Assembly: GCA_030280995.1 (NCBI GenBank)
Contig: JASXTE010000001.1
Location: forward strand, 9,581,001 to 9,645,000
Reading direction: 5' to 3'
DNA: 64,000 nt
Source of the DNA: Hemileia vastatrix
Taxonomy: Eukaryota > Basidiomycota > Pucciniomycetes > Pucciniales > Zaghouaniaceae
Position numbers and translations under genes: made by a program. The notes beneath the pieces were generated by a model, which was not told the origin of the DNA, ran no database searches, and saw only the letters and a list, made by a program, of their open reading frames with translations. Each line of letters starts with the position of its first letter. Position 1 is the stretch's first letter. Shown in pieces: positions 7,024-59,150 of this stretch.

Positions 7024-8864
7024 CTATGTGAGTTCGACATTTTTCAAACTTTTAGATTTCCGCTTGCCATGACGGTCAAGTTTTTGCTGCTTCATTTTAT
7101 GTATCAGTTTTTTTTCTCCGAATTTAATTTCTTGCAAAGTCTTTTATTTGTTAACATATAACACAAGTAAATTTTATTGGATTTATATCAGATAAAACAT
7201 AATAGATCAGTCTGAGCTGTGGCAAGTTATTATGTCGGTAAAAAATGATTTTAGTGGAGAACTTACCAGAATTGCTTCACGTTTGGCCCTGCTAATAACA
7301 TTGAGATTCGCAAGTACATCTTTTTCAGGAATCACAATTTCTTCCAACTTCTTCTGCACTCTTGCCTCGACAGCTAATATACACTTCACATCTGATTCAC
7401 AGACAAAACTGACGCTGACACCACCCTCAGAAACCGCAGCTTCCCCACGACAGGTTCTCCCAACTCGATGGACATATTCATCGGGATCACTGGGTACATC
7501 CCAATTGATAACTACACCAACATGTTTGAAATCTAACCCTCGTGAGCCTACATCAGTAGAAATTAAAACATTAGCTTTCCGAGTTTCAAAAAGCGCCAAG
7601 TGTTGAAGGCGAGTTGCCTGAGATAAATGAGAGTGAAGGGTAGTGCAATGAAATTGGTGAGGGAGAGTTGGAGAAGTGAGCAAATGGTGCAACATCTCGG
7701 CAGTGTAGGGCTTGGCGACAAAAATGATAGTTTGGGGAAGTATCCGGGTCGGATCGTTTTCCAGATTATCTTCATTCTTGCTATTTTTGTGACTTTTCCT
7801 AGACTTAAGGGTGGTGGCTGTTTTTGGAATTGAAGCTGGTTTGGCACCCGTTAAAGAACAAATGTCAAGAAGTACATGATATAAATGACATTCTTTAACT
7901 TGAGAAGGCACAAATGTATACATTTGACGAAGATTAGGAGGAAGATTGACTCTAGAAGGGCAAGCTCCAGATAAAGTCAGTTGATTGACAACAAAAGAAT
8001 TGCTCAGTGTTGACACAAACTATAGTGACAAACTGATTAGGGCCACAAAGATGAATGGATGGCTTAGGCCGTCCAGATCCCGAACTTTTAGAACCCAAGG
8101 CAAGTACAGATTCAGTCATTGTAGCTGTGAAGAGCAAAGTCTGACGTTTATCGGGGGTAGGAAGATGATTATGAATCAAATAAGATAATGGCTCTGCAAA
8201 AGTTGGCGTCAACATCCGATCTGCTTCATCCAAAACCTGGGGGAGATATAAGAAAATCAAAACAAGTCTTAACTATTTAGGGTCAAAAATTCACTAGAAA
8301 GGGGAAGATGATATTCAATTAGGTATAACAACCGACCAGAAAGTGGCACCTAGACAAACCCCACCGTCCATGTTCACCATCAGCACTTTTGAGATGATCA
8401 ACTAGCCTGCCAGGGGTAGCAACAATTACATGAGGGCGTTTGTTGAGTTCGACAGCTTGAGCAATCATGTCCATCCCACCAACAACTACAGCACAGCTAA
8501 AACCATGGAGGACAGCTTGGCCAAGTAATCTAAACTGCGACGCAATTTGGAAAGCAAGTTCTCTTGTGGGAGTGAGAACCAATGCGAAGGGGCCAGAGGG
8601 GTCATGGCAAAGTTTATGGAGGATTGGTAGAACAAAAGCCAATGTCTTTCCAGAGCCGGTATGAGCAGATCCAATGACATCACGGCCTGGTGACGAAATG
8701 AAAGTTCAGTAAGAGAGTAAGGAAGACAATAGATGGAGGAAGAAAGCTCAACCTTGGAGGATGTCAGGGATGGCGGCAAGTTGTATCGGAGTGGGAGAAA
8801 CAATGGAGAGGGCAGCAAGAGCCTTGACAAGGGAGGAGTTGATGCCAAGAGCAGAAAATTCCAT
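7024..8864 (-). CDS. DBP8: DEAD-box ATP-dependent RNA helicase, DBP8/DDX49-like
   Basis: Predicted nucleolar RNA helicase for small-subunit rRNA maturation. Four exons read by eye: 8864-8753, 8686-8337, 8236-7267 and 7140-7024, total about 515 aa. Motifs in order: Q-motif region with SPTPIQ (about residues 22-27), AHTGSGKT (Walker A), PTRELA, GG, ATPGR, DEAD (about 157-160), TATMT in the SAT position, TIIFVAK (motif IV), [11 protein letters not shown] (motif V) and HRVGRTCR (motif VI). The C-terminal exon is Lys-rich ([14 protein letters not shown]), as expected for the family tail. Introns 1 and 4 end or begin with clear AG/GTAAGT signals. The donor GTCGGT of intron 2 is weaker but gives an exact HFLVLDEAD join. 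One oddity: around 8000-8040 the frame must change by one base between the IHLCGPNQ segment and the [14 protein letters not shown] segment, because exon 3 is 970 nt long. This is a real frameshift, a sequencing error or a missed micro-intron. Assignment to DBP8/DDX49 rather than another DEAD-box subfamily rests on overall recall of the motif context. Confidence 0.85.
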
Positions 8865-14189: not shown

Positions 14190-14194
14190 GGAAC

Positions 14195-15005
14195 TGTCAC
14201 TGGACAACCTATGCACAAGGTCAAGGGTGTTCCTGGAAGTGAGATGAGGAGAGTAGTTTAGAAACTTCTTCAAAGCACAGAGGAAATGTTTGAGGAATTG
14301 ATTTGAAGATGACTCAAAGGAAGAGCTACTGCTTTGAGATATGTTCAATAAGAATTCTAATATAATTTAAAGGTAATATTATTATTCTTAAGATCTCACA
14401 AAGGGTTGAAAACTCAATAATCAAAGATTTAGGATTTAGAAATGATTACTGAGAAAAAATAAGGAAATGTACAATAATAATGATTTAACCTAAATCTTTA
14501 CCACTATTAACTATATATACATTTTATAATTTAATTCTAAAGGAATATTGAACCAGAATCCAACCCCTTTTATATCCATTACTCCTCCTTGCACTGACCT
14601 CATACCCATCCATTATTCCGCACACCACAGACCACCAAAATTACATCTGTTACACCTGGACCCTCCTCACTAACATCCGTTAACCCTTTAATCCTCTACT
14701 AACCATCCCATCCATGCTCACTACCCCTTTTAATAACCCACAGATACTTAATAAACCTTTTAGCGGACTATTACATTAACTATTGCACTGTGTGTTGCTT
14801 ATTGAGGAAAATACTAAAACACACTATTGAGAGATTGACTAATTTAGATTTAAAGTTTAGACTAGTGCGTTTGAATAGTGAGTACACAAAGGAAGGTTGC
14901 AGTTTCTATGTAGAATTGTTTTCTGCGCCTTGAGTATGGATTTAGACCTCTGTATTATTGATTTAATGAGCTGCTTTTGCCTCGAGTGTCACGTGGCGTG
15001 TGACA
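14195..15005 (-). repeat. Chromovirus copy 1, 3' LTR
   Basis: 811 bp. In plus-strand reading it starts TGTCACTGGACAACC and ends GTGGCGTGTGACA, matching 23148-23959 and 56452-57264. Differences from its partner are scattered and few. An open reading frame across the plus strand here (MDLDLCIID...) is just LTR sequence and joins the extra gene only by chance of frame. Confidence 0.9.
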
Positions 15006-15103
15006 GATGCCCGGGTATAAAAACGCGAGCTCTGTTTAGCATGAGACATATTTTTTCCACACTACTTTCTCTCCATTCTTATTTTAATTATTTTATTTTT
15101 ATT
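15006..15103 (+). promoter_or_regulatory. TATA box and leader of the antisense gene, copy 1
   Basis: Directly after the LTR comes CCGGGTATAAAAACGCGAGC, with TATAAAA at 15016-15022, followed by a pyrimidine-rich leader and the start codon at 15104. The same block is conserved at 57265-57360 in copy 2. In gag-pol orientation this junction should hold a polypurine tract for plus-strand priming, and I do not see one. Confidence 0.65.
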
Positions 15104-16054
15104 ATGTTGACTTGTCCTACCCCAACTCCCACGCCTCCACACCCCAAAGCGGATGGTGGACTGGTTACCCGGCAGTATTCTCAAGCATGCACGGCCTGTG
15201 AATCAATGGAATATTTTTGTTCCAAAAGCACAGCTACACAAGGTCCTTGCCAGAAATGCAAGTTTTGCCGCTGGAGACGGGTGACATGTGATGCCCTATC
15301 AAAAAAGGCGGACATCAAACAACAGTTTACAAAAACTAAATACTGGGTAATACTGAAGACCAAAGAGGTGGTCGAAGATATCTGGGATGTATCAGTCAGG
15401 GAAAATCAGTCGGTGGGAGAGATTGAGGAGGAGGTCAAGGATACCGTGGCAGCCTGGGTAACCCAGGCCACAGGTAAAAAACAAGGGGTGGAAGAGGAGG
15501 TAGATGAGTTGGTTGAAGAGGATGAGGATGAAGTCCCCATCTCGAGACTGAGACTAAAGAAGCGGCGGATGGTCATCGAAGATGACAAAGAGGAGAAGGA
15601 AGTGACAGTGGAAGTCACCCCAAAATTATTTTTAGAAGCTGACCCATCTTTCAAAGTAAGTCTGCTTTTTCTTTTATTTTAAAAAATTTTGTTACTGATG
15701 ACCATATGTTTTTAGAATTCAGATGCCATTGCGGAAGCTCCAATTGTGGAAGCTGCAACATTGCTGTCAGTTGAGGAAGATCAACCAGTGATTGATTTGA
15801 GGGAGGACAACAAAGAAACTCTTGACCAAGTATGGTCAAAGAAACCTTGGCAAGGTCGAAAAGCTTGATTCATTGAGTATATAAGTGGGGAGGTCGACAA
15901 GATTGTTGATGCTACCTCCTTCAAGGTGGCTGAAGAATTACTAGAAATTAGGGAAGTGGTACCAGTAGGAGAGGAGGAGGTATTTGAGAAATGCAGGAAG
16001 GAAATAAGGGTGGTTTTGGAAAAAATGAAGAAGTTGGTTCAGGAGAAAATTTGA
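15104..16054 (+). pseudogene. Antisense gene with Zn2Cys6-like motif, copy 1
   Basis: Two exons, 15104-15655 and 15716-16054, joined by an intron with GTAAGT donor and TTTTTAG acceptor. The protein of about 297 codons starts MLTCPTPTPTPP, then QYSQACTACESMEYFC and GPCQKCKFCRWRRVTC. The cysteines follow C-X2-C-X6-C-X9-C-X2-C-X9-C, near the fungal Zn(II)2Cys6 pattern, with basic residues between the last two. A long acidic region follows (EEEVDELVEEDEDE), then a helix-prone C-terminus (EVFEKCRKEIRVVLEKMKK). It runs opposite to gag-pol. One in-frame TGA at 15866-15868 breaks exon 2. Copy 2 is open at that codon, so the ancestor was intact. Function is unknown. A DNA- or RNA-binding or regulatory role is inference from the cysteine pattern alone; the region between C2 and C3 lacks the usual basic residues of GAL4-type domains. 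Confidence 0.72.
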
Positions 16055-16900
16055 AATGGAAGGAAAAAAGAAAAAGGAAGAAAGAGGGAAGGAAATAAGT
16101 AGAAAGCAATTTGTGTATTTATTTATTTATTTTATTTTTGTTGTTTTAATTCTAAATTTTGATATATATTTTATAAGATTTGGAGAAAGAAAAAGAAAAA
16201 AGGAAAAAAGAAAAGATTTGAATAAAATTTTGTTTTTAATTTTGAAAGAAGAAAAGAAAGAATGTTTAACTAAGGAATTTTTAGTTTAAGTTTTGAAAAA
16301 AAAAATTTAAGTAAGAAAAGAAAAAAAAAGTTGATTGAAACAATTTTGTTTGAAATGAAAATTTAATGAGAGAAAAATTTGTTATTTGTGAAAATTTATT
16401 TATTGAAATTTTGAGGAATTTAGATTTTTTTGAAAAGAGAGAAGAAAAATAGTTTTGAAAAAATTTGAAAGAAAGAAGTAATTTGTTTGAAGAATTTTAA
16501 AAGAGAGATTTAAAGGTTGAAGTGAAATTTGAAAAAGATTGTCATATTGAGTTCATGAAAAATTTTGATAGTTCAAAGAAAAAGAAATAAGGGAAAAGAA
16601 AAAAAGTTTGAAAGAAGAAAAAGAAAGAAAATTAAAGGAATTATTGATTTTTAAGATTTTATTTTAATTATTTTATTTTATTATTTTTTTAATTTTAACT
16701 TTTAATTTAATTTAATTTTAGTTTATTTTATTTTATTTTATTTATTTAATTTATTTATTTAGTTTTAAAGAAGATTGAAAAAAGTTTTTGAGAAGAAGAA
16801 AGAAGAAAAAGAAAAAACAGAGTAAGTATTTTTAGAAGAGAAGAAGTTTTAGGATTTTAAGAAAAGAAAAGAAAAGAGAAAGAAGAGAAAAAAAATAAAA
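16055..16900. other. GA/T-rich low-complexity spacer of the chromovirus
   Basis: Strand-asymmetric sequence of GAAAA-type purine runs with TTTTA runs, lying between the end of the antisense gene (plus) and the end of pol (minus). The corresponding stretch in copy 2 is 58328-59150 and shares the composition and many phrases. It separates two convergent transcription units and may carry both 3' ends. No protein is called. Confidence 0.55.
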
Positions 16901-16907: not shown

Positions 16908-17112
16908 CTAAGGTTTTGGTTTTAAAGGATATTTAAGATGAAAAGATTTTAGGAGTTCAGGGGCGTTAGAAAAATTGATGGCTGGTTCCCAGGATGTTTT
17001 GTCTGCGTCATCGAGGAAGCATTCCCATTCCACGAGGTATTGAAGTTTCCTCTTGCACATTCTTGAATCAAGGATACGGCTTACTTCCCACTGTAGATGG
17101 TCTTCTACTTCG
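16908..17112 (-). pseudogene. Chromodomain at the Pol C-terminus, copy 1
   Basis: Reads, in order, WEVSRILDSRM, KLQYLVEWE, DKTSWEPA and NAPELLKSFHLKYPLKPKP, then a TAG stop at 16908-16910. This is a canonical chromodomain layout. In chromoviruses it guides integration to chromatin marks. This copy lacks the two stops that interrupt the same domain in copy 2. It is cut off from the rest of Pol by the insertion at 17118-18464. Confidence 0.85.
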
Positions 17113-17117
17113 ACTGG

Positions 17118-18464
17118 TGTGGTACACGCCTCGCAGGAAGCGTGATTTTAGACCAATCAGCGCACGTAGTCCAGGAAGAACAAAGGGGAGTTAGCGCAGC
17201 AGGAAATGTTAAAATATAATATGTATTTGTGTGTTTCAAGGAACAAAGGAAATGGAAGCGTGGAAAAAGATTAAGGGTCTGTGCGCTCGGATTTTGCAGC
17301 AAGATGTGCCGCACAATAGGGAATTGTGTATTATTAACTTAGGACTATTACGCGCTAAACAATATGGATTTGGGCTTTCCAAAAAGTATGTGTTACGCAT
17401 TAAGAAGAAAGTCATGGATTAAGGACAACTCAAGTGCATGGTATGCTGTACCGTGGCCAGTTGGGAAACTTACTGAGACAAGTAATGAAGAAGGCTAACT
17501 AGTTAAGCGAGCTGTCAGAACTATGAACCTAGTATTAAAGTAAAGAGAGTGGGGACTCAATCGTAAAACTACCCAAGAGTTAAGGCAACTAGACGCAGCG
17601 TTAAGATAAGTCAAACCTGGAACTAGCGCTGAAACAAAACAAGGTATAGTTAAAAGCGCATATGTGGAGAATCAGTGAAACAAGTTAATACTAGTGTTAG
17701 TAATTATAGGGTCTGATTTAGGTGCTGTAGTTGTTGCAAGCAGTGTAAGTAGCATACTAATAAATAGTTATTGTTTTACTAATGAGGCGCTAGAGTCAGC
17801 ACTGGAGATCCATTAGGGAACTGTGTCTTGAGCGCTGGAAGAATATAAAAGGAGGACTATTAGGTAGGGACAAAAGAGAGGACTGGTCAATCTATCTATT
17901 TAGTTAATAAAATAAGAAAAATCGCATTAGTTGTCATTTTAAAAAGCAGATCATAGAAAAATCAATATAGAGATATACGTGTAGCTATAGTCATAGTACC
18001 CAGTATAAGATATTAGATCTTTTTGTGATTAATTGTTTGAGAGAATATTAAAAGGTATTTTCTGAGTCTTTTAGAGTTTGTGCGTCTGTGTGTGTATTTC
18101 ATATAGTATAGTGAAAGAGCGCAACATAGAGAGAATATATAGATTCAGTGGGATTAACTATTATTAGAGATATTTTATTACTATAATAAGGCATATTCAA
18201 AGAGAGCGCTTCAAGAGGGAGTAGCTGTGGATAATAGCGCTTGTTAAGAATAGAAATATCCAGATAGTAATACTTTTTTTTGTTTTTTTTTCCTTATCTT
18301 TAACTCATCTCAACTTATAAACTTTCTAGTCAAATATTAGTGTTACACATTATTACACTGTCTTTAAAAATAATAGTGGCAGGCGCTTCTTTTTATAAAT
18401 TAAAAAAGGAGAACCAACCCATCTCGCATTGTGTCTACTGCTTAGTACTTTAGAACAGTCTACA
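17118..18464 (+). mobile_element. LTR-like insertion in chromovirus pol
   Basis: Comparison with the uninterrupted sequence of copy 2 (59352-59372) shows about 1.35 kb inserted between ACTGG and CCGGTTTCGG. The insert starts TGTGGTACACGCC and ends AGTCTACA, so TG...CA ends with a 4-bp duplication CTGG/CCGG (one difference). If the limits are moved by one base, a 6-bp duplication ACTGGT/ACCGGT is possible. It contains TATAAAAGGAGGA at 17844, the same core motif as the solo LTRs at 34428 and 40082, so a solo LTR is likely. A 63-codon open frame (17231-17422) is not recognisable. Confidence 0.65.
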
Positions 18465-21400
18465 CCGGTTTCGGAGGAGGTTGGTTCCTGCCCGGGTATG
18501 TTTCTCAAGCCAGTTCCAGGAGAGATACGTGGAAAACAGGGTGAATAGCCTGCCATTTAGGAGGTAGCTTGAGTCCAAATGCAGTTTTAGAGACTTCAGA
18601 GTTGATTTCGAATGGTCCTAAGCACCTTTTGGCCAGTTTCTTTTATGGTCAAGTTGTTTGAATGTTTCATGCGTCGAGCCATACTTTGTCGCCTGGTTTA
18701 AAGGAAGGAGCAGATTGTCAATGTTTGTCGGCCTGTTCCTTGTACCTTTGAATCGCTAATTCCAATTTTGATTTAAGTTATTATTGGAGTCGTGATATGG
18801 TTAAAAGATAATGTTCCACAGGATGACTAGTTCCTACATGGATTGAGTTGAATCAAGGATGTCTTCCATAAATAGTTTCAAAAGGAGATTTTCATGTTGA
18901 AGAATGAGTCAAGTTATTATAAGCAAATTTGGCCAATGGTAACCATGTGGTCCAATCTTCTTGTTGGTAACTGAAATTAATTTGAAGGTATTGTTCGAGG
19001 ATTTGGTTGACCCTTTCTGTTTGTCCATCAGTTTCAGGATGATAGGCCATGGAAAGATTCCTCGTGATATTGAGTTGTTAACACAGTTGAGTCCAGAATG
19101 TGGATACAAACAATGAGCCTCTATCTGAAATAACATCAATAGGTAAGCCATGTTTGGAAAATACATATTCTAGAAACTATTTTGACAAATCTTCTGCTGT
19201 AGCAGTAGTAGTGGTTTTAATGAAAATAGAAATTTTTGAAAATCTATCTACTATTACTAATATAGCATCAAAATTATTAGAAAGAGGAAGTTGAGAAACA
19301 AAATCCATCGATAATGATTCCCAAGGTTTAGAGGGAATAGGAAGTGGTTGAAGCAACCCATGCTTCCAGTGATGGGGAGCCTTATTCCTATTACATTTGT
19401 GACAAGATCTTGTATAGGCCTTGATTTCTCTGGTCATTCCTGGCCAGAAGAAATCCCTTACTATTAACTGGTAGGTTTTATCAACCCCAAAATGACCAGC
19501 TAATGGAGAATCATGTTGACTATTGAAAATCCATAATTTTATTTCATTGTTGTCGGGTATGACTACTTTACCTTCGAAAACTAATAGACCTGATTCAATA
19601 CTAAATCTTTTGGCCCCTTGCTTCGAGAGTATTTTGTCTTTTATCCCTAAACAATAATTGTCCTTTGACTGAGCTTTGAGGATTTTGGATAGTGGATTTT
19701 GAAAAGATTGAATGGTCATCAAATTAAGTTAATGAGTCGTTAACATTGATTTTTTTAAAATTGATTTCACATTTGCTGGGTTCTTGTCAGCAAATGCATC
19801 CCCCCGCTGTGGGTAAATGTCATCCCAACGTGACAGGATATCTGGGACAATGCAGTTCATACCTGGGTGATAGGAAATAGAAAAAGGAAATTCAGACAGA
19901 AATTCAGCCCACCTGGCTTGACGCCTGGTTAACACTTTGGAAGACATAAAGTATTTCAAAGCATTATGGTCAGTCAGGATTTGAAAAGGACTATCTAGGC
20001 TGAGAAGAAAAGAGCACCATTTTTTAAGACAATGAATAATAGCTAAAAGCTCTTTATCATGAATTTCACAATTTAATTCTGCCGCAAGGAGTTTGCATGA
20101 CTCAAAAGCAACAGGATGAACCAACTTTGTTTCAGGATTGAATTGAGAAATGACCCCTGCGATAGCATAATTGCTAGTGTCTGTCTCAACTATTGTCAAA
20201 GCAGAAGGATCAAAGTGCCAAAGAATTGGAGCTGTGGTAAGCTCAGTCTTCAATGCTTTGAATTCCTTTTGTGCTGTAGAAGTAAAAACAAAAGGAATAT
20301 CTTTTCTAAGAAGAGAAGTAATATTGGAAATAGTTTTAGAGTAATCTTTAATAAATCTTCTATAGAAATTGGCAAAACCCAAAAATCCTTGGAGGGATTT
20401 AACGGTTTTGGGCTCAGGCCATTCCAGGACCTTTTGGACCTTTTTGTCGTCCATGACTAAACCATCAGTGGACAATGTAAAACCCAAAAAATCAATAGAT
20501 TTAAGATGAAATTTGCATTTATTGTGCTTGGCGTAGAGACCGTGATCTCAAAGGCGATTTAGAACCTGTCAAACATGATGAATATGTTCATCCAGTGTCT
20601 TCAAGAAAATTAAAAAATCGTCTAAGTAGACGACAAAAAATTGTTTGACAACATCTTGAAAGATGTCATTAACAAAAGTTTGAAAAGTAGATGGTGCGTT
20701 ACATAATCCAAAAGGCATTACTAAATATTCAAAACTAGCAAATCTAGTGTGCATTGCAGTCAGTGGTTCATGACCTTCCGCATTGCAAATAAGATTATAA
20801 GCACCTCTAAGATCAATTTTAGAAAAGAAATTAGCACCATTAAAAAGGGTAAGAAGCAATGACATAGGAGGAACTGGATATGCATTCTTCTTTGTAACTG
20901 TGTTGAGCTTTCTATAGTCAACACACAACCTAAGGCTACCGTCTTTTTTCTTTACAAAAAGAACAGGGCAGCTGGTTGGAGATTTACTGGCTCTGATGAA
21001 ACCTTTGGCTAAATTCTCTGCAATGTAGTCTCAAAGAACTTGAGATTTGTCCTTTGACAAAGAATAGACAGGACCTGCCGGAGGTACTGGACCTATTAAC
21101 TCTATTTGATGGTCGTAGGGTTGATGAGGTGGTAACTTATTGGCCTTGCGGATTGAGAAAACATCAAGGAAATCATGATAGATTTCTGGTAGAGTTGATT
21201 TGTTCATCCTCATCATCTTCGAGAGAATCTGTCGAGGGAAGACCAGAATTGAGAGAGCATAATTCGACTACTTTGAGGCAATTTAAATCCTCTTCAAGTG
21301 AAGTGATTGAGCTAGAAGGGTTAGCCAATTGCTCATTTAGAGAAAGATCAGATGCTTTCAAGTCATCTGGAAGAGATTTTTCCTCTAGCAGGACATTGTC

Positions 21401-21871
21401 AGGCAGGTTTTTTAGCTCCCTATTGACCTGCATTGAAGAATCAGAAATATAATTAGTGCGTGGGGTGATCAATCCCCGAGACCAATCAATTTCAGTATTC
21501 CAATGCATTAAAAAGTCATGGCCAAGGATGGTATTGTCCATTCTTGGGGTGTCCAAGACTGATAATTCCCACTCAAAGGAGGTAAAGTTCAGAAAGTTGA
21601 AAACCCATAAAACTTTATTACTTACCCAATATTTGGGTTCCTCTGATTCAACCAAATAAATTGGAGTTTGATCAATATCTGTGAATGTCAGCTTTAACTT
21701 CTTGGAAAAAGATAAACTGACAAAAGAAATTGAAGCTCCAGAGTCTATAAGACAACTGAAGGGGGTATCCTCCTTGAAAAGAATGAATCTCAAGTGGTTT
21801 AAGGCAATTCCAGTCCTTAAGACATGGAGGTTCTGTGCACTGGGAGAGATAAGATAGTTTGCTTTGCACAC
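18465..21871 (-). pseudogene. Chromovirus pol, copy 1 (protease to integrase)
   Basis: Broken minus-strand frames in normal order: protease with LIDSGAS (about 21750), reverse transcriptase with [35 protein letters not shown] and the catalytic YLDD (frame 20928-20569), RNase H with ETDTSNYAIAGVISQ and LTDHNALKYF (20487-19729), integrase zinc region H-H-C-C (HDSPLAGHFGV ... SCHKCNRNK), and integrase core beginning SMDFVSQLP (19722-19177) with its continuation to about 18909. Between 18465 and 18900 lies the linker to the chromodomain. Stops and shifts separate the pieces. The active-site YLDDFLIF has F where copy 2 has I. Confidence 0.85.
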
Positions 21872-22230
21872 AAGTAAACTATCTACTAGTTTTTTGACCT
21901 TGAACTAGTACCTTCTCTTTCCTTCAACTTTACACAATCTTCTATCTTGTGCTTACCCCCACAATACATACATAACCCATTATCTGCTTGTCTCTTCCTC
22001 TCAGCTTCTTTAAGTTCCCCTTTTGGATCCAGTACCTTAATGATATCACCTGGGGTTGAGCCTTTTGGTCAAGGTTTGTCCTTTCCCTTATTGGGTTTGA
22101 ATTGAGTCGAGGAGGATTGAGTTGTCCGTGTGTGTGACAAAGGTCCTGATTTAAAATTTAGGCCTTGAGATTTGTTGGCATATTGACGATGTTGTAGTTG
22201 TCCTTGGTAAATGCCATTGAGTTTGAGGGT

Positions 22231-23073
22231 TCAATCCATTAAATCCGTTAAAGTAGTCATCTTCTGACCATGAAGATTTAATTGATCCAGAATCCTCGGA
22301 GGAAGTCCCTTTTTGAAATGATACTTGAGGGCAGCATCATTCCAACCTACTCGAGTTTGAAGTTCTCTGAAGTTCAAGATATATTCAGAGGCTTTACCAT
22401 TATCACTCATGTGAAGGAAATCAATTTCAATTTCCGCGTTGTCAGTTTTATTAGGGTCACCAAACAACGTAAAGAGTTGGTCTTTGAATTTTTCCCAGTT
22501 ATTGATGAGTAAGTGGGTTTCTGTCGAAGAGAGCATGAGAAGATAAGGTTCGAACCATCTTGCTGCTTTTATGGCTAGGAATGAAGAAGTGTAAACAACC
22601 TTCGATCGGTAGTTATTGAATGTTCAAGGGTCGTTATGGAACAGGAGCTTGCAGGTTTGCAAGAAGGGGCGCAATCTGTCTGGGTGTTCTCCATCAAATT
22701 TATCAGGAGATTTCATGGAAGGAGTTTTGAATTTTGATCCCTCCAAAGACGTTGGATTGGAAAGGGTTTTCATGAAAAGTCTCATGAAGTCTTCCAGAGA
22801 ATTAGATGGCCCAGGTTCCAAAGGTTGACCAGAAGGGTGAGTAGCAGGGGCAGATGGTGCCTCATGCATTGTATCCTCTCCTACTTCTTCCTTTCTAGAA
22901 TCATCAAAATCCTGGGGGATGTCTTCTACAGATTGGACTGAGTGTCCTCGTTCCCTAAGGTTGAGAGGTTCCAGGGAGTGAGTGCGGGAAACAGGCCGTG
23001 TGGCTGTTGGCCTGCCTCTGGTGCGAGCCCTGGTAGTAGTGCCTGTAGGAGGAGTGTGTTGAACAGGTGCCAT
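22231..23073 (-). pseudogene. Chromovirus gag, copy 1
   Basis: Starts MAPVQHTPPTGTTTRARTRG at 23073 and continues with a capsid-like region (SLEDFMRLFMKTLSNP; PDKFDGEHPDRLRPFLQTC; then 22536-22231 with QLFTLFGDPNKTDNAE). The frame is broken between 22624 and 22536. A zinc knuckle C-X2-C-X4-H-X4-C (CMYCGGKHKIEDC) lies downstream near 21945-21983. Copy 2 keeps the same first 240 codons open. Confidence 0.8.
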
Positions 23074-23132
23074 TTAAAGAATTTAAAACACCTGAAAGAA
23101 AGACGTAGTAGCTCCAGAGAATGAGAACTATG

Positions 23133-23147
23133 GAGAATTAAATTATG
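23133..23147 (-). promoter_or_regulatory. Candidate self-priming primer-binding site
   Basis: Just inside the 5' LTR, in element sense, the sequence is GC followed by ATAATTTAATTCT. These 13 nt are perfectly complementary to AGAATTAAATTAT in the LTR (23492-23480, sense orientation). A tRNA match is not apparent to me. Complementarity between the primer-binding site and the transcript's own 5' end is the known arrangement of self-primed chromoviruses such as Tf1. Confidence 0.6.
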
Positions 23148-23959
23148 CTGTCACCAGACGACCTATGCACAAGGTGGAGGGTGTTCCTGGAAGTGAGATG
23201 AGGAGAGTAGTTTAGAAACTTCTTCAAAGCACAGAGGAAATGTTTGAGGAAGTGATTTGAAGATGACTCAAAGGAAGAGCTACTGCTTTGAGATATGTTC
23301 AATAAGAATTCTAATATAATTTAAAGGTAATATTAATATTCTTAAGATCTCACAAAGGGTTGAAAAATCAATAATCAAAGATTTAGAATTTAGAAATGAT
23401 TACTGAGAAAAAATATGGAAATGTACAATAATAATGATTTAACCTAAAGCTTTACCACTGTTAACTATATATACGTTTTATAATTTAATTCTAAAGGAAT
23501 ATCGAACCAGAATCCAACCCCTTTTATATCCATTACTCCTCCTCGCATTGACCTCATACCCATCCATTATTCCACACACCACAGACCACCAAAATTACAT
23601 CCGTTACACCTGGACCCTCCTCACTAACATCTGTTTACCCTTTAATCCTCCACTAAACATCCCGTCCATGCTCACTACCCCTTTTAATAACCCACAGATA
23701 CTTAATAAACCTTTTAGCAGACTATTACATTAACTATTGCACTGTGTGTTGCTTATTGCGGAAAATACTAAAACACACTATTGAGAGATTGACTAATTTA
23801 GATTTAAAGTTTAGAGTAGCGTGGTTGAATAGTGAGTACACAAAGGAAAGTTGCAGTTGCTATGTAGAATTGCTTTCTGCACTTTGAGTATGGATTTAGA
23901 CCTCTGTATTATTGATTTAATGAGCTGCTTTTGCCTCGAGTGTCACATGGCGCGTGACA
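23148..23959 (-). repeat. Chromovirus copy 1, 5' LTR
   Basis: 812 bp, the partner of 14195-15005. In element sense it begins TGTCACGCGCCATGTGACA and ends TCTGGTGACA. Confidence 0.9.
23480..23528 (-). promoter_or_regulatory. Chromovirus gag-pol core promoter and inferred start
   Basis: In element sense the LTR has TATAAAAG (23528-23521), followed about 36 nt downstream by AGAATTAAATTAT (23492-23480), the segment complementary to the candidate primer-binding site. That places the inferred RNA 5' end at or near 23492. The same pair of elements is present in the other LTRs. Confidence 0.55.
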
Positions 23960-23964
23960 GGAAC

Positions 23965-37570: not shown

Positions 37571-38849
37571 TATCTGTTTCATATTCTTCTGTTTTTAAAA
37601 CTTTGAAGAAGGGATTCAAAACTCTAAAAATCAGGTTGCAAATGTGTGGGTGGTTATCAGGTGGAACACAGGACTTCAACATTATAAAATTGTTTGTTCA
37701 CATGAATATTACTGCTTCAAATCACAAATTTTTTTTCTCCGGTGGTTACATCCCTTAAATATGTTTTGATATATCTTATTTTTTTACTTTCAATTTAGCC
37801 ATAGTAAAGATAAATACACAATCAAAAGTTTCTAAAGAAAATAAAATAAATATTTTCCTTTCAACCAAAAATTTAAGAAGCTTTTGAAGTTTGGTGACAG
37901 TTATTGCTTCACTAGTATTGAGACTTTAAATTTTCTAAGTGTTTCAATCAAATCTAGCTTCTAAAATATTTCCTCAATATAAAAAAAACTCTCACTAGTT
38001 GATTATTTTATATATTTAATAGAAATGAAATGAAATTTAAGCACATTCAGCCCATATTTTTTATATAGTATGTGAAAACATTTTTGTAAAAAAACTATAT
38101 CATGTTTACTAATTTTTTATTTACGCTTTAAATTGACTCTCATGTATTCATGTATTTTTTTCATGTTTTAAAATCATTTTAAGATATCTTAATAATTTTA
38201 TCTGGGGTTTTAAGCAAGTCTTTGAGAAAAGGTAATATAATTTTTCTTAATATTTTAATCTGTGTTTTATGCTGACTCTAGCTTTCACTGTTTTGATCTG
38301 AGAGTAATGTAATTTAGTAAAATATACTTAAAATTTTAACTGAGTTTTAAAGTGAGTTAAAAGTATATACACATTTCATTAAGACACCAAAAATAAAAAA
38401 AAACCTAATTAACAAAGTATGGCATAGATTTAGTTTGCTTCCTCAAGATTTCTTTTATTCATTAAATAGGGTTGATAATTGTTAATTCAAGTAAAAGTAA
38501 AAAAAGAAGTTCCATCAGAAACACCAAAATTAATCAAATGTTGAACAGGAACACTTTAAAATATATCCGTTGATTCATTTGAAGCATCTGAACGCATACT
38601 TCAAATGTACAATTTAAATAGTCAATATTAGCAAACTGAAAATAATTGAGCAGTGTATGTACATTATCAGAATCTCCCAGTGTAGAAAAAGGAGGGGAAA
38701 TGATTGTATTTTTGCTAATTTGTTTTGATCACTAGAGCCAAAACAGTACCCATGAACAGTTCCATCAATTTATTGAAATTTAGAGGTCTTAGGGGGCATA
38801 ATATTGTTACCTCATTTGGATTTTCAGGCTTTGAAAAACCCCAAAGGAA
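37571..38849. other. AT-rich unassigned region
   Basis: No coding, RNA or transposon feature recognised. Confidence 0.45.
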
Positions 38850-39815
38850 AAAATTTAAAATTTAAAATTTAAAAATTTAAAAATTTAAAAATTTAAAAAT
38901 TTAAAAATTTAAAAATTTAAAAATTTAAAAATTTAAAAATTTAAAAATTTAAAAATTTAAAAATTTAAAAATTTAAAAATTTAAAAATTTAAAAATTTAA
39001 AAATTTAAAAATTTAAAAATTTAAAAATTTAAAAATTTAAAAATTTAAAAATTTAAAAATTTAAAAATTTAAAAATTTAAAAATTTAAAAATTTAAAAAT
39101 TTAAAAATTTAAAAATTTACAAAATTTAAAAATTTAAAAATTTAAAAATTTAAGAATTTAAAAATTTAAAAATTTAAAAATTTAAAAATTTAAAAATTTA
39201 AAAATTTAAAAATTTAAAAATTTAAAAATTTAAAAATTTAAAAATTTAAAAATTTAAAAATTTAAAAATTTAAAAATTTAAAAATTTAAAAATTTAAAAA
39301 TTTAAAAATTTAAAAATTTAAAAATTTAAAAATTTAAAAATTTAAAAATTTAAAAATTTAAAAATTTAAAAATTTAAAAATTTAAAAATTTAAAAATTTA
39401 AAAATTTAAAAATTTAAAAATTTAAAAATTTAAAAATTTAAATATTTAAAAATTTAAAAATTTAAAAATTTAAAAATTTAAAAATTTAAAAATTTAAAAA
39501 TTTAAAAATTTAAAAATTTAAAAATTTAAAAATTTAAAAATTTAAAAATTTAAAAATTTACAAAATTTACAAAATTTAAAAATTTAAAAATTTAAAAATT
39601 TAAAAATTTAAAAATTTAAAAATTTAAAAATTTAAAAATTTAAAAATTTAAAAATTTAAAAATTTAAAAATTTAAAAATTTAAAAATTTAAAAATTTAAA
39701 AATTTAAAAATTTAAAAATTTAAAAATTTAAAAATTTAAAAATTTAAAAATTTAAAAATTTAAAAATTTAAAAATTTAAAAATTTAAAAATTTAAATATT
39801 TAAAATTAAAAATTA
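38850..39815. repeat. (AAAAATTT)n satellite
   Basis: About 970 bp of an 8-bp unit AAAAATTT, roughly 118 copies. Only a handful of variants occur, such as TTTACAAAATTT near 39117 and 39560, TTTAAGAATTT near 39151 and TTTAAATATTT near 39440. A/T only. The unit carries the rigid AAATTT step. It begins and ends gradually with shorter TTTAAAA repeats. Confidence 0.95.
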
Positions 39816-39825
39816 AATAAATAAA

Positions 39826-42190
39826 AAGTGATCAAAGACTCACAAATGAGCAGGGAATATTTTCAAGCCATTTTCAAGAAGAGAAAAAGCAAAAAATAAA
39901 TAAGAAAAAAAATTAACCAAAAATGCTAAGTCACCATTAAGAAACCCTCCTGCAACTTATTCCAAAGCTACATAGAAAATAAAAAAAACAAATAGTACTT
40001 ATATTATGACAAAAAAACCCTCTGAAACTTTTTCCAAAGCAAAATAAAATTTTAAAAAAATAAAAAATAAAGAAAACTCACTGATAATGAATTTAAGCCT
40101 GGATGTTCCCAGGACTGAGTAAAAGGTACTTATAATTTATGTTAAACACATTGACTATACATGGGAGCAATAAACTAAAATACACAAGCAGCATACATAA
40201 GTAAAAATTATGATAAAATACAATATATGCCATTATAACACCTTATATACACGCATATATCCACCTTTAATAAATCTTATGTACTTAATATTAAGTTTTA
40301 ATATGATAGGGTAATCTTAAGAACCTTAAATATAAGGCTACATAGTTTTTAAGTACACTTAAAGCTGTTATTTTCATTGTTTTATGTAAAAAACAAGAAA
40401 TGCGCTTTAAATCACTTAAAAGTTGATTATATGCACTATAAATTTAATAATATTAAAGATGGGCTTTTACAGATCAATTTGTCTTAACTAGGACTATTGA
40501 TTTGGCTATTCAAATGCATAAAAATAATACTTTTCAAATTTGGTGTTTTTCATGCCAGAAATGGCTTCTGTGTACTGGCCACATACTGCCTGCATTTTTC
40601 CCATGTGAATAGCTTCATTTTTAGCAAAGTTAGCTTTTTCACACTATAATTACCCCACATTCTACGCCCACTGTGGGTAAACACACTAAAATAGGTGATA
40701 GGCGCTTATTTAGTGTCCTAGCTTAATTATAAATGCATTGACCCTCTTTATATGCACTAATTTCATTAATAACCTCATTCTTGGCACTTTAATTCACTAC
40801 CATGCTTAAATTTGCCTTAATTAGTCAAGGATTTACCTGTGCAAGCACCTGCCAAGGACTTCATGTAGTTACCCCACAACTCACACCCTTTTTTGGGTTT
40901 TTTGGTGGTTTCTCAGTCAATTTTGGTTATTTTTGAATGGGGATTTCACATAGTATAATGTCATTATTAGCCCCAACATTTCTACAGTTAATCCCACTTA
41001 TTATTAAGTATTAATTAGTCTTAATTTTCCCTTTTTGGCCTTTTATATTAATGTATAATATGCATATACTCTCTTTTTTGCTTTATTCTTTATTTTTGAT
41101 GGATTATCCCTATTACTATAGGATTTTGGCGGGTGATATCATTCTAATTATGTTACTAGTCACTCTTTTTGGTTCTGAAAATATCTATTGGCTAGAATAA
41201 GGCGTCATTAACTGTGTATTGAGTTGTTAAATCATAAGGGTCATTGGTGAAGTAATTGTGTATAAAAGGAGGAGGTTTTTGGTCTTATCTTCTTCATTAT
41301 TTATCATTACAATTAAACATAAAACCAATACAATTAAAATACATATCAATAGTACTTATAAAGTCTTTGAATAGTATCTGAATTTATTAAATCTATTTTT
41401 TTACCAACTATAAGATTGTAAGCCATATATAATTAGTGAGATTAAAATTTCTGAGAGCCTTATATTGAGTTACATTTAATACTTATTGGATTTTTACTAC
41501 AGAATTCATATAGGACCATTAAAATCTTCTAGAAAACTGACCATTCAAGCTATTTCACGTCTTTGTACTTGAACTCAGCCTGACAATCACTCAGAAGGCA
41601 TCAAGAAACCCTTCTACTCCTGTTTCAAAAAATTTATTTAAAAAAAAAAACAAAAGATGAAAAAGAAAAACTCACCCAAAAAAAACACTCAGAAACCATC
41701 AGAAAGCCTCCTGACTCTGTTTTGAAAAAAAAAAAAAAAAAAAAAAGTGATTCACCTATTTGGACATATGCTAAAAACATTTCCAAACTATTTTTAAGCA
41801 AAAAAAAAAAAAAATAACAAGGAAAAAATTACACCAAAACACTCTAAAAAATCATTAACCCTCTTGCAACTGTTTCCAAATCCATTAGAAAAATAAAAAG
41901 TGATTCACAAACTTGAAAATGTGTTGGGAACATGTTCAAGTCATTTCCATTAAGTAAAAAAAAAAAAAAAAAAAAAAAACTTAAAAACTCAAAGATAATC
42001 ATGTACCTCTCCTGCCACTGTTTTTAAAGAAATTGATGACAAAAAAATGGGTTTCAACAACTCATCCTTGTACTGGGAATGTGTCCAAGTCAATTCAAAT
42101 GCATAAAATCAAGAAATCTTACCCAAAAAACACTCAAAAAAAATCAAGAAGTCATTCTACAATTATTTTCTAAGAAATTGAGAAAAGAAA
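39826..42190. repeat. Decayed tandem array interrupted by a solo LTR
   Basis: Imperfect units of very roughly 130 bp recur at 39826-40080 and 41590-42190. Each has phrases like AAAAAGTGATTCACAAAC, GGGAACATGTTCAAGTCA, a poly-A run, AAACACTC, and CCCTCCTGCAACT with TTTCCAAA. The solo LTR at 40082-41585 separates the two blocks, and another LTR copy lies at the right end. Units are too diverged for exact borders by eye. Confidence 0.5.
40082..41585 (+). mobile_element. Solo LTR, copy B
   Basis: 1,504 bp closely similar to copy A throughout, ending CTCAGCCTGACA. The left end is diverged (TGATAATGAATTTAAGCC in place of TGTCAGCC). Flanks CTCAC (40077-40081) and ATCAC (41586-41590) give a 4-bp duplication TCAC plus one mismatch. 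TATAAAAGGAGGAGG occurs at 41261. Confidence 0.8.
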
Positions 42191-44869: not shown

Positions 44870-45245
44870 TCTTTCTCCCTTCCCTTTCACCTTCACTAGA
44901 AACCCCACTCCTCAAACTTACCTCGCTCTCCATCCCTTCATCTCCACTAGACACCCCAGCACACCCTTTCAACTTTAATTGATGCCTCACCTTTCAAATC
45001 CACCTAGCTTTACTCCCTTTTGCCTCCAATAGAAACCCCACTCCTCAAACTTACCTTGCTCTCCATCTCTTCATATCTACTAGACACCCCAGCACACCCT
45101 TTCAACTTTAATTGATGCCTCACCTTTCAAATCCATCTCGCTTTACTCCCTTTTGCCTCCAATAGAAACCCAAACACACCTTTTAAACCAAACTTGATGC
45201 CCCAAGCATCAAAAACCTCCTCTCTCTCCCTTCCTCTTCACCTCC
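44870..45245. repeat. Left inverted arm, 133-bp direct repeats
   Basis: Pyrimidine-rich units containing CTCCTCAAACTTACC, CACTAGACACCCCAGCACAC and TTGATGCCTCACC repeat with a period of 133 bp (AACCCCACTC at 44901 and 45034, related sequence near 45167). Complementary to 46160-46545. Confidence 0.8.
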
Positions 45246-46159
45246 AATTGACACCTCATCACCCAAAAATTAGCTTGTCACCCTCTTATGTGCTTCTTTA
45301 GTACCTTGAACATATATTTAATTTGTCCACATTAATCAAGATTTATAAAACAAAGGTTAACATTAATACAAACTATCACATTAACCTTTACTTATAGACA
45401 TCATAATAGGGAAAAAATATATATTTCAAAAATTTTGAATGTAACAGGGACTGTAATTTTTGTATTCAGGAAACTTACAAAAGAGTCAGGTCGATAATTT
45501 TCTAATCTTTTTTGGGAACAAATTTACTTTTTTACTTATTTATGGCATGAATGATAACTCTTGGCCCTTTTGACATTTTTTTTGTGGATGTTTTTTTAAA
45601 CTAAACTGGTGTGGCATCTTTTATGTTGGATGCATCACCCAAAAAAAGCCTAAAAACCCCTAATTAGGGCCGGAAAAGTGCTGATACAGCTAAACAAAGT
45701 ATTAAATAATTTTTGTGAAAAAGGCCAAGCATTTATGGTTTTGCCAAATATATAATTGTACAAATTAAAGTGACTGTTTGTCAGACTTTTAGTTACTTTT
45801 TGGAGATGCTTAATGGTGTGAAATATAATAATTTTTTTATTCATTGGTTCATAATTTATTTATTTATTAGCTATTTTCTTCAAATAATGTTCATTTTTAT
45901 TATATTGGGCTATTAAATCATATATCTTGTCCCATAGACTATTCCAGTTATTGCAAAACAGTTGTCTGTATCATAAACTTATTTTACTATATTTGTATTG
46001 CTTTTATTTATTCATCTCTATAAATTTAATATTACATACTTTAAGATTATCATTTACTTTTTTTTGTGGAGATGAAGTGAAGAAGAGAATATTGGATGTC
46101 AAGGTGGAGGGTTTTTGGTTGGAGGCTATGGAGAGGGTGGCGAGTTAATTTTTGCATGA

Positions 46160-57264: not shown

Positions 57265-57360
57265 GATGCCCGGGTATAAAAACGCGAGCTCCATTGAGCG
57301 TGAGACATATACTTCCCACATTATTTTCCCTTTATTTAATTCTTGTTTATTATTATTATT
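57265..57360 (+). promoter_or_regulatory. TATA box and leader of the antisense gene, copy 2
   Basis: TATAAAA at 57275-57281 in the context CCCGGGTATAAAAACGCGAG, identical to copy 1, then a pyrimidine-rich leader to the ATG at 57361. Confidence 0.65.
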
Positions 57361-58327
57361 ATGTCAGCTTGTCCAACTCCAGCTCCCACGCCTCCTCGCC
57401 CCAAAGCGGATGGTGGGCTCGTTAATCGACAGTACTCCCAAGCATGCACGGCTTGTGAAACGATGGAATACTTTTGTGTTGAAAGCATGGCTACTCAAGG
57501 TCCTTGTCTGAAATGCGAGTTTTACCGATGGAGACGGGTGGTGTGCGATGCTTTAGCTAAAAATTCTGACATTGAAAAAAGGTTTACCAAGACCAAATAT
57601 TGGGTAATACCAAAGACCAAAGAAGTGGTCAAAGATATATGGGATGTGTCGATCAGGGATGATCAATCAGAAGCAGTTGAGGAGGAAGTTGAGGACACCA
57701 TGGCAACCTGGGTAACCCAAGCCACGGGTAAAAAACAAAGGGTAGAAGAGGAGGTGGATGAATTGGTGGAGGAAGATGAGGAGGAAGTCCCCATCTTAAG
57801 GCAGATGGTCATTGAAGATGACAAAGAAGAAAAACAAGTGGCAGTGGAAGTCACATCAAAGTTATTTCTAGAGGCTGATACAATGTTCAAAGTAAGTTTG
57901 CTTTTATTTTATTTTATTTTAATTTTGTTTTTTCCAAAGAAAATTTTTTACTGATGACCGTATGTCTTAGAATTTAGATGTCATTGCAGAAGCCCCTATG
58001 ATGGAAACCTCGAGTGTGGGAGCTCCTATTGTGGACGTGGCACTGTTGATTCCAACTGAAGAACATTTACCAGTGATTGCCTTGAGGGAGGATAATGAAG
58101 AAACTCTTGACCAGGTATGGCCCAAAAAACCTCACCAGGGTTGACGAGCTAGGTTTATTGAAGAGTTCAGTGGCGATATCAACAAGATTATTGATGCTGC
58201 CTCCTTCGACGTGGCTGAAGAATTGCTGGAGATTGGGGAAGTGGTACCAGTAGGAGAGGGAGAGGTTTTTGAGAAATGTAGGAAGGAAATAAGGGTGATT
58301 TTGGAGAAGATGAAGGGATTGGTTTGA
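57361..58327 (+). pseudogene. Antisense gene with Zn2Cys6-like motif, copy 2
   Basis: Exons 57361-57891 and 57971-58327 with an intron at the same position and phase as copy 1 (AAA|GTAAGT ... TCTTAG|AAT). The cysteine core keeps six residues, ACTACETMEYFC and GPCLKCEFYRWRRVVC, giving C-X2-C-X6-C-X9-C-X2-C-X9-C. The seventh cysteine of copy 1 is Tyr here, so six is the conserved number. Acidic middle and C-terminal FEKCRKEIRVILEKMK are retained. A TGA at 58142-58144 interrupts exon 2, where copy 1 has CGA, a C-to-T change at CpG. Plus strand, opposite to gag-pol. Confidence 0.75.
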
Positions 58328-59150
58328 GAGAAAATAAAGGAGAAAATTTAAAATGGAAGAAAAAAAGAAAAGAAAGAAAGAGGAAAAGAAAAGTAGAAAA
58401 AATTTGTATATTTATTTATTTTATTTTGTTGTTTTAATTAAAATTTTTAATATTTATTTTATAAGATTTTGAGAGAAAAAGAAAAAAAAAAAGAAGAAAG
58501 AAAAAGATTTGAATAAAATTTTGTTTTAAATTTTGAAAGAAGAAAAAATTTGAATGAAAGAAGAAAAGAAAGAATATTTAATTGAAGGAATTTTAGTTTA
58601 AATTTTGAAAAGAAAAAATTTAAGTAAGAAAAAAGAAATAGTTGATTGAAATAATTTTGTTTGAAATGAAAATTTAATGAAAGAAAAAATTGTTATTTGT
58701 GAAAGTGTATTTATTGAAGTGTTGAGAAATTTTAGTTATTTGAAAAGAAAGAAGAAAAAATAGTTTTGAAAAAAATAATTTGAAAGAAAGAAGTAATTTG
58801 TTCAAAGAATTTTAAAAGAGAGATTTAAAGGTTGAAGTGAAGTTTGAGAAAGATGGCCATATTGAGTTTGTGAAAAATTTTGATAGTTTGAAGAAAAAAA
58901 AAATAAAATAAAATAAAATAAGGGAAAAGAAGAAAAGTTTTGAAAAGAGAGAAGAAAATTTAAAGGAATTTATTGATTTTTTAAGATTTTAATTTTATTA
59001 TTTTGTTTTATTTTATTTTATTTTATTTTATTTATTTTTAATTTAATTTTAATTTAATTTAATTTATTTTAGAGAAGGTTGAAAACTTTTGAAAGAAAAA
59101 AGAAGAAAGAAGAAAAGAAAAGAAAAGAGAAAGAAGAGAAAAAATAAAAG
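58328..59150. other. GA/T-rich low-complexity spacer, copy 2
   Basis: Counterpart of 16055-16900: purine runs of the GAAAGAA kind and TTTTA runs between convergent genes. Alignable in parts, with length changes in the runs. Confidence 0.55.

What the first reader, a model, noticed from the sequence alone, without database searches (positions are those of the whole stretch)
15006..16054. Chromovirus with a promoter-equipped, intron-containing gene on the opposite strand (copy 1)
Between the end of pol and the 3' LTR, on the strand opposite gag-pol, lies a two-exon gene with a TATA box 82 bp before its ATG and a six-cysteine motif C-X2-C-X6-C-X9-C-X2-C-X9-C, close to fungal Zn(II)2Cys6 spacing, followed by an acidic region. 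Extra antisense genes are known in some plant retrotransposons, but I cannot name a described fungal family with this combination. An element-encoded nuclear regulator or RNA-binding protein is possible. The function is inference.
Basis: partly seen in the sequence, partly recalled or inferred. Interest (0 to 1): 0.85.

Follow-up and report, generated by a model that had tools for sequence, protein, structure and literature searches.

The report
Spliced zinc-cluster gene antisense in chromovirus
A jumping element present in many copies in the coffee leaf rust fungus carries, on its opposite strand, a small gene with its own promoter-like block and an intron, and comparison of related copies indicates that the protein it encodes was kept by natural selection while the element was mobile.

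Summary
The observation largely holds. The window matches the Hemileia vastatrix Race I assembly (same largest-scaffold length). Between pol and the 3' LTR of a chromovirus (LTRs 14195-15005 and 23149-23959, 5-bp target duplication, Chromo domain E 7e-11) lies an antisense gene: conserved TATA block, exon 1 15104-15655, 60-nt GT-AG intron, exon 2 15716-16054.

Across 93 copies, shared variants of exon 1 pile up at third codon positions (39/35/85), singletons do not (114/117/101). Intron length varies in all three phases; exon 1 keeps frame in 88 of 93. A gene-blind sample of 20 copies repeats this for exon 1 and reveals a second subfamily (one pair: dN 0.14, dS 2.4). So this is a spliced, selected gene.

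Pfam Zn_clus matches only weakly (best E 0.023).

Most likely product: an element-encoded nuclear zinc-cluster regulator (inference). Antisense accessory genes are known in plants and in Botrytis (brtn), so this is a new variant of a known kind.

The parts
14190..14194 (.). target-site duplication GGAAC (left)
   Evidence: read; matches 23960-23964
14195..15005 (-). 3' LTR of copy 1 (gag-pol sense is minus)
   Evidence: 95.6% identical to the other LTR; TG..CA ends next to the TSD
15013..15032 (+). antisense core-promoter-like block GGGTATAAAAACGCGAGCTC, next to the LTR edge where a polypurine tract would be expected
   Evidence: identical at 57272-57291, no match in 100 shuffles; TATAAA at the site in 80 of 93 copies, TATA start 79-93 nt before the ATG
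15104..15655 (+). exon 1 of the antisense gene (184 codons, open in copy 1)
   Evidence: selection
15188..15289 (+). zinc-cluster-like region: conserved Cys29, 32, 39, 52, 55, 62 = C-X2-C-X6-C-X12-C-X2-C-X6-C
   Evidence: 80 to 92 of 93 copies keep each; Zn_clus sub-threshold in 5 of 10 pieces scanned
15479..15532 (+). acidic stretch (aa 126-143)
   Evidence: mean 10.5 D/E in aa 126-150 over 88 in-frame copies
15557..15568 (+). basic patch KKRR (aa 152-155), nuclear-localisation-like (inference)
   Evidence: basic K/R pattern in aa 149-160 in 73 of 88 in-frame copies
15656..15715 (+). spliceosomal-type intron, GTAAGT..TAG, conserved CTGAT branch-like site
   Evidence: GT-AG in 85 of 93 copies, length 53-79 nt; columns
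15716..15865 (+). exon 2, first piece (open)
   Evidence: codon constraint not visible here (shared variants 11/11/15)
15866..15868 (+). in-frame stop in copy 1
   Evidence: a stop at this codon in 27 of 93 copies
15869..16054 (+). exon 2, remainder; terminal stop codon 16052-16054
   Evidence: terminal stop in 79 of 93; shared variants 15/3/25 by codon position
16055..16860 (+). purine-rich tail between gene and pol
16911..17117 (-). chromodomain end of pol
   Evidence: Pfam Chromo E 6.9e-11
17119..18463 (.). nested insertion in copy 1, absent from copy 2
18464..23073 (-). gag-pol, decayed (stops and frame changes); upper limit is the first ATG read after the LTR
23132..23148 (-). likely primer-binding site; contains a 13-nt complement of LTR position 23492-23480, about 30 nt after the sense TATAAAAG (self-priming type)
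   Evidence: chance expectation not computed
23149..23959 (-). 5' LTR of copy 1
23960..23964 (.). target-site duplication GGAAC (right)
57272..57291 (+). same TATA block in copy 2
57361..57891 (+). exon 1 of copy 2
57892..57970 (+). intron of copy 2 (79 nt)
57971..58351 (+). exon 2 of copy 2, broken by two in-frame stops

Best explanation
An accessory gene of a probably self-priming chromovirus family in the rust Hemileia vastatrix, lying antisense between pol and the 3' LTR, with its own TATA-type promoter block and one spliceosomal intron. Shown: it is coding, its splice signals are kept, and its amino-acid sequence was under purifying selection while the element was mobile. Because it is antisense, the intron and promoter are not removed from the sense genomic RNA and so survive each round of retrotransposition (follows from the known retrotransposition cycle). 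Inferred: the product is a small nuclear protein with a GAL4-like Zn2Cys6 cluster whose basic half comes second, plus an acidic stretch, a basic patch and a C-terminal helix-like tail. It would bind DNA and tune transcription of the element (its own LTR or the antisense promoter) or of its silencing. Target and direction of the effect are not known.
For: Selection: in 93 copies, columns with a second base in at least 9 copies fall 39/35/85 on codon positions 1/2/3 in exon 1 (p 5e-7) and 27/15/40 in exon 2 (p 0.003). Singletons are even, 114/117/101 and 88/98/85. LTR control 8/9/11, post-gene control 7/9/7. Gene-blind sample, 19 aligned of 20 copies picked by chromodomain, second base in at least 3: exon 1 63/55/134 (p 2e-10), singletons 81/75/79. 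dN/dS 0.17 between the window copies; copy 1 to subfamily-B copy L113 dN 0.14, dS 2.4. Splicing: GT-AG in 85 of 93; intron length mod 3 is 27/32/34 while exon 1 keeps frame in 88 of 93; GTAAGT in 18, and GTAAGT..TAG in 17, of the 20 gene-blind copies. TATA block conserved. Six cysteines at exact Zn2Cys6 spacing conserved in 80-92 of 93, and mostly kept in subfamily B. Zn_clus is the only Pfam hit in 5 of the 10 zinc-region pieces scanned (E 0.023-0.52). In 4 of those 5 the best stretch puts Cys52-Cys62 on the first half of the profile; in the fifth the best stretch puts the Cys29 half on the second half. Acidic stretch and basic patch. Analogy: plant antisense genes reported nuclear or predicted DNA-binding (passages).
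Against: No transcript data could be examined. Zn_clus never reaches its 21-bit cut-off and is absent in 5 of 10 pieces, window copy 2 among them; exon 1 of window copy 1 as a whole has no Pfam hit. Other, evidently chance Pfam hits in A1 had better E-values than Zn_clus (Augurin 0.006, DUF6615 0.013; Zn_clus 1.3). No solved-structure relative: no match, three unrelated matches at E 0.55 or worse. AlphaFold models were not usable (pLDDT 35 and 45). The stretch between Cys32 and Cys39 is not basic, unlike GAL4-type clusters. No target site was shown. In exon 2, codon constraint is not visible before the copy-1 stop (11/11/15, p 0.65), and exon-2 singletons of the gene-blind sample are uneven (47/25/26, p 0.009). 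Only 5 of 93 copies are open across both exons with intact splice sites, so most sampled copies make no full protein.
Confidence: 0.6

Rival explanations
1. A spliced, selected antisense gene whose product acts in the particle or on RNA: a zinc-knuckle-like nucleic-acid chaperone, RNA exporter or silencing suppressor, not a DNA-binding regulator.
For: Cysteine-rich segment with a basic WRR part; acidic low-complexity parts; the tests show selection but not which function. Pfam Zn_clus is weak.
Against: The cysteines fit Zn2Cys6 spacing exactly, and no retroviral or CCHC zinc-finger family was among the Pfam matches. A basic patch resembles a nuclear signal (inference). A TRAM match (E 0.09 at best, 3 of 30 members) is too weak to weigh.
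Confidence: 0.25
2. The antisense transcript itself is the functional product (it makes double-stranded RNA with the genomic RNA and limits copy number); the protein is secondary.
For: Both strands of 15005-16054 would be transcribed if both promoters work; the review names this possibility for plants. The cassette is unusually diverged at synonymous sites, as escape from small RNAs might produce.
Against: Strong amino-acid constraint, frame-keeping indels and six conserved cysteines are not expected if only the RNA mattered.
Confidence: 0.1
3. A chance open frame or decayed captured host gene with no role in the element.
For: Copy 1 and copy 2 are both broken in exon 2; no relative found in the protein collection.
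Against: Exon 1 end to end in 15, and parts of the gene in 4, of 20 chromodomain-picked copies; third-position excess only for shared variants of exon 1; between subfamilies dS is 2.4 or saturated while dN is 0.14-0.19.
Confidence: 0.03

Closest known systems
Plant aORF-3R antisense genes (Grande gene23, RIRE2, Retand/TRP28)
   Same: Ty3/Gypsy element; gene antisense between pol and 3' LTR; own promoter and nuclear product reported for Grande gene23; TRP28 predicted to bind DNA (passages read).
   Different: Retand is a non-chromovirus lineage of plants with TRP28 (PF04195) products; the term intron did not occur in either paper's main text. Here a rust chromovirus, a six-cysteine cluster, and a conserved intron.
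Boty-like elements of Botrytis cinerea with the antisense gene brtn (Zhao et al. 2011, Virology)
   Same: Fungal Gypsy-type element with an additional antisense gene. Seen only as a reference title and in one methods passage of PMC8365987; the paper itself was not read.
   Different: Ascomycete. No brtn sequence was at hand, so homology was not tested; whether brtn has an intron, promoter or zinc motif is unknown to me.
Fungal Zn2Cys6 (GAL4-type) binuclear cluster proteins, Pfam PF00172
   Same: Six cysteines with C-X2-C-X6-C-X12-C-X2-C-X6-C spacing, within the recalled C-X2-C-X6-C-X(5-12)-C-X2-C-X(6-8)-C rule; acidic region downstream.
   Different: Below the Pfam cut-off; basic residues sit in the second half-site (RWRRV-type) and not the first, as if the halves were swapped; no fungal transcription-factor homology domain among the Pfam matches; encoded by a retrotransposon.
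Antisense genes of deltaretroviruses (HTLV HBZ type; the name HBZ is recalled)
   Same: Antisense coding gene near the 3' LTR; HTLV is the analogy drawn.
   Different: No sequence relation tested; the HTLV antisense promoter lies inside the 3' LTR, here just inside the internal region.

Membership tests
Chromovirus (Ty3/Gypsy with integrase chromodomain) | Chromodomain at the end of integrase | tested here: met
   Pfam Chromo E 6.9e-11, 42.3 bits against cut-off 25.1
Chromovirus (Ty3/Gypsy with integrase chromodomain) | Gypsy-order pol with RNase H and integrase zinc domain, LTR pair and TSD | tested here: met
   RT_RNaseH E 7.7e-30, Integrase_H2C2 E 6e-21, integrase core only E 0.019 in the broken piece; LTRs; TSD
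Antisense accessory gene between pol and 3' LTR (plant aORF-3R kind) | Gene antisense to gag-pol between pol and 3' LTR, present in most copies of a family | tested here: met
   exon 1 end to end in 15 and parts in 4 of 20 chromodomain-picked copies
Antisense accessory gene between pol and 3' LTR (plant aORF-3R kind) | Transcribed from its own promoter | not testable with these tools
   Only a conserved TATA block was shown; no RNA data
Antisense accessory gene between pol and 3' LTR (plant aORF-3R kind) | Homologous to gene23, TRP28 or brtn | tested here: inconclusive
   No TRP28 (PF04195) match in Pfam scans; gene23 and brtn sequences not at hand
Zn2Cys6 binuclear cluster (PF00172) | Six cysteines with canonical spacing | tested here: met
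   Cys29/32/39/52/55/62 in 80-92 of 93 copies; spacing rule recalled
Zn2Cys6 binuclear cluster (PF00172) | Profile score above Pfam gathering cut-off | tested here: not met
   Best 15.2 bits against 21; 3 of 30 exon-1 proteins list it at E up to 10, best 1.3
Zn2Cys6 binuclear cluster (PF00172) | Basic DNA-contacting residues between Cys2 and Cys3 | tested here: not met
   ESMEYF-type there; basic WRR lies between Cys5 and Cys6; the feature itself is recalled, seen in GAL4 and LAC9
Zn2Cys6 binuclear cluster (PF00172) | Binds two zinc ions and DNA | not testable with these tools
   Models too poor to use

The most novel reading that the evidence does not exclude
A chromovirus family carries its own zinc-cluster transcription factor, with the two Zn2Cys6 half-sites in swapped order, as an intron-containing antisense cassette. 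The cassette lineages have drifted several times further apart at synonymous sites than the gag-pol genes they ride with (four- to ninefold for the window copies, more between subfamilies), as if element types were kept distinct by type-specific self-regulation or by escape from small RNAs made in this possibly two-strand-transcribed region.
Probability: 0.25. Interest if true: 0.8.

Novelty: new variant of a known kind. Interest (0 to 1): 0.62.

Why it matters
If confirmed, a family with many copies in a large rust genome (81.66% masked as transposable elements) encodes its own regulator. Genes of this assembly were called on the masked sequence, so such genes would be missed. The antisense intron gives a natural counterpart of the laboratory retrotransposition-marker design (recalled): it survives only because it is antisense. 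It makes the open question of what antisense accessory genes do testable with many natural variants under measurable selection.

Tried and rejected
Led nowhere: exon 1 (83 candidates) and its 30-member alignment (7995 candidates scored) found no relative in the protein collection, though a pol piece found 3068 proteins, with Austropuccinia psidii and Puccinia sorghi among the 120 listed. So some rust proteins are held, and the gene is either specific, unannotated or too diverged. IMG/VR scans with exon 1, its alignment and pol gave no relative. Structure predictions were too poor to search. A bacterial promoter scan does not apply to a fungus and was not used. A search of the own genome for host PF00172 genes, meant to test the swapped half-sites, did not complete. 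A look for CpG decay among exon-1 singletons was uninformative: 45 of 331 were C-to-T or G-to-A, 0 of 331 at majority-CpG sites.

Rejected: co-divergence of U3 with the gene (LTR A-B identity is even, 82-87%). Random reassortment of cassette and LTR: a first correlation near -0.1 came from an alignment with badly placed LTR columns; pairwise BLAST gave rho 0.72 over 355 of 528 pairs. The first multi-copy alignment mixed strands and was discarded. One search timed out and was rerun.

Limits of the samples: the 93 copies are window copy 2 and 92 loci from best-scoring matches to copy 1, one of them copy 1 itself; 60 were taken from the lower-ranked rows; locus L028 was dropped as a duplicate of L008. 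The 20 gene-blind copies are among the best chromodomain matches, not random ones; L105 did not align and was left out of the counts, so these rest on 19. First-look candidate counts (3964, 6861, 2289) are unscored and are not copy numbers. NG86 without transition correction inflates dS; the raw third-position counts carry the same message. The 10 pieces were chosen from the 30 members of A1.

Full report
Where it is. The window is G000:C26:9581001-9645000 of an assembly of 747,610,610 bases in 791 contigs. Contig C26 is 71,415,227 bases long, exactly the largest scaffold of the Hemileia vastatrix Race I assembly in PMC10652848 (747,980,110 bases and 794 scaffolds in its table, GC 33.78%, 81.66% masked as transposable elements; part 1 of 2 of the text read). 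Totals differ slightly, so the held version may not be the same file, but the host is, with little doubt, the coffee leaf rust fungus.

The element. Copy 1 has LTRs at 14195-15005 and 23149-23959 (95.6% alike), flanked by the duplication GGAAC. Gag-pol runs on the minus strand: RNase H, integrase zinc domain and a chromodomain (Pfam Chromo E 6.9e-11). It is a decayed chromovirus, with stops and frame changes in gag-pol and a 1345-bp insertion (17119-18463) missing from copy 2. The stretch just inside the 5' LTR is complementary over 13 nt to LTR position 23492-23480, about 30 nt after a sense TATAAAAG. That points to self-priming of the Tf1/sushi type (type recalled; chance expectation not computed). 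Copy 2 starts at 56452 and runs off the window.

The antisense gene. On the plus strand, immediately inside the 3' LTR, a block GGGTATAAAAACGCGAGCTC is identical in both copies and has no match in 100 shuffles. Exon 1 is 15104-15655, the intron 15656-15715, exon 2 15716-16054. In copy 2 the intron is 79 nt instead of 60, while each exon differs in length by whole codons. Copy 1 has an in-frame stop at 15866-15868; copy 2 has two in-frame stops in exon 2, at other codons. Of 93 copies, 27 carry a stop at the copy-1 codon and 79 keep the terminal stop.

Is it selected? I aligned 93 copies (window copy 1 as L001, window copy 2, and 91 further loci). Variants found in at least 9 copies stand for changes inherited while the element was moving; single-copy variants stand for decay after insertion. 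Shared variant columns in exon 1 fall 39/35/85 on codon positions 1/2/3 (p 5e-7) and in exon 2 27/15/40 (p 0.003). Singletons fall 114/117/101 and 88/98/85 (p 0.52, 0.60). Controls in the LTR end and after the gene are even, 8/9/11 and 7/9/7. The part of exon 2 beyond the copy-1 stop is constrained (15/3/25, p 2e-4), while the part before it is not visibly so (11/11/15, p 0.65). Exon 1 keeps frame in 88 of 93; intron length mod 3 is 27/32/34; exon 2 keeps frame in 69 of 93; GT-AG is kept in 85 of 93; 5 of 93 are open in both exons with intact splice sites.

Gene-blind check. Because that sample was picked by similarity to the gene, I picked 20 copies by their chromodomain. Exon 1 runs end to end in 15 (in some the fetched stretch ends inside exon 2), the gene is partial or rearranged in 4 (L098, L100, L106, L108), and L105 holds none of it; 18 have the GTAAGT donor and 17 of these end in TAG (breakpoints of five). 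Three (L094, L095, L113) have exon 1 in frame without stops. On the 19 aligned copies, variants in at least 3 fall 63/55/134 (p 2e-10) in exon 1, singletons 81/75/79. In exon 2 shared variants are 34/26/65 (p 4e-5); singletons there are uneven, 47/25/26 (p 0.009), an exception to the pattern. The sample holds a second subfamily, B (L095, L096, L099, L103, L104, L108, L112, L113), about 73% alike in DNA. Its TATA block reads TATAAGAA or TATAATAA in 6 of 8; in L096 that part is not held and L108 is rearranged. Window copies: dN/dS 0.17, bootstrap 0.12-0.25. Copy 1 against B copy L113: dN 0.14, dS 2.4; against L095 dN 0.17 and dS saturated.

What it encodes. The conserved cysteines are 29, 32, 39, 52, 55, 62 (89, 80, 88, 87, 89, 92 of 93); Cys49 is cysteine in 33 of 93; Cys4 in 88 of 93 but Phe in 7 of the 8 B copies and a gap in the eighth. 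The spacing C-X2-C-X6-C-X12-C-X2-C-X6-C is that of Zn2Cys6 clusters (rule recalled). Pfam does not accept it: no hit for copy 1, Zn_clus listed for 3 of 30 members at E 1.3 or worse, and sub-threshold in 5 of 10 zinc-region pieces, where it is the only family. In 4 of those 5 the best stretch puts Cys52-Cys62 on the first half of the profile, and in one the Cys29-side half on the second half. Together with the basic residues lying between Cys55 and Cys62, this suggests swapped half-sites; it is a lead, since the planned profile comparison could not be run. An acidic stretch and a basic patch follow. Structure predictions were not usable.

How it probably works. Shown: coding, splice signals kept, selected, with a conserved TATA block. 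From established knowledge: a gene antisense to the genomic RNA keeps its intron and promoter through retrotransposition, which a sense gene would not. Inferred: the protein enters the nucleus and binds DNA to regulate the element. Plant counterparts support the kind of function: Grande gene23 reported nuclear with its own promoter, TRP28 of Retand predicted to bind DNA (passages).

An unexplained feature. Exon 1 is far more diverged at synonymous sites than gag-pol of the same copies. For copies 1 and 2 its dS is 0.90, against 0.225 for gag, 0.124 for protease, 0.19 for RT and 0.10-0.12 for RNase H-integrase. Between A and B exon 1 gives 2.4 (L113) or saturation (L095), against 0.16-0.17 for RNase H-integrase of copy 1 with L095 and L104 (pol of L113 was not fetched). 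LTRs are 91% alike for copies 1 and 2 and 81-87% between A and B. Singletons are not raised in the gene, and LTR and exon-1 identity are rank-correlated among the copies (rho 0.72, 355 of 528 pairs). Old cassette lineages with homogenised pol, or faster change during the mobile phase, would both fit.

Novelty. Antisense accessory genes are known in plants and in Boty-like elements of Botrytis (brtn; title and a methods passage only). In the paper library, full text of open-licence papers only, the listings showed no title or abstract start on such a gene in a rust or on a zinc-cluster version; one search found no paper at all, and the others list 8 to 20 of up to 310. I read passages of three papers and part of a fourth. 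I file it as a new variant of a known kind.

Noticed in passing
17119-18463: 1345-bp insertion splitting the chromodomain region of copy 1, absent from copy 2, with TG..CA-like ends between similar 5-mers: probably a nested solo LTR of another element.
   Followed up: partly
15006-15029: No purine tract stands upstream of the 3' LTR in gag-pol sense (read by eye); the antisense TATA block occupies the place where plus-strand priming would be expected. How this family primes its plus strand is open.
   Followed up: no
23132-23148 and 23480-23492: Likely primer-binding site complementary over 13 nt to the likely transcript start in the LTR: a self-priming type of chromovirus in a rust.
   Followed up: partly
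L098 and L100: Two of 20 chromodomain-picked copies carry internal deletions that remove the start codon and zinc region of the antisense gene.
   Followed up: partly
38849-39827: About 1 kb of nearly pure A/T satellite with a unit of about 8 bases.
   Followed up: no
7207-8642 (minus): Pieces of a DEAD-box-type helicase gene, probably a host gene (Helicase_C E 7e-23 for one piece).
   Followed up: no
44881-46619: Inverted and tandem repeats of 133-nt units (arms of 333 nt, 92% complementary, 967 nt apart).
   Followed up: no
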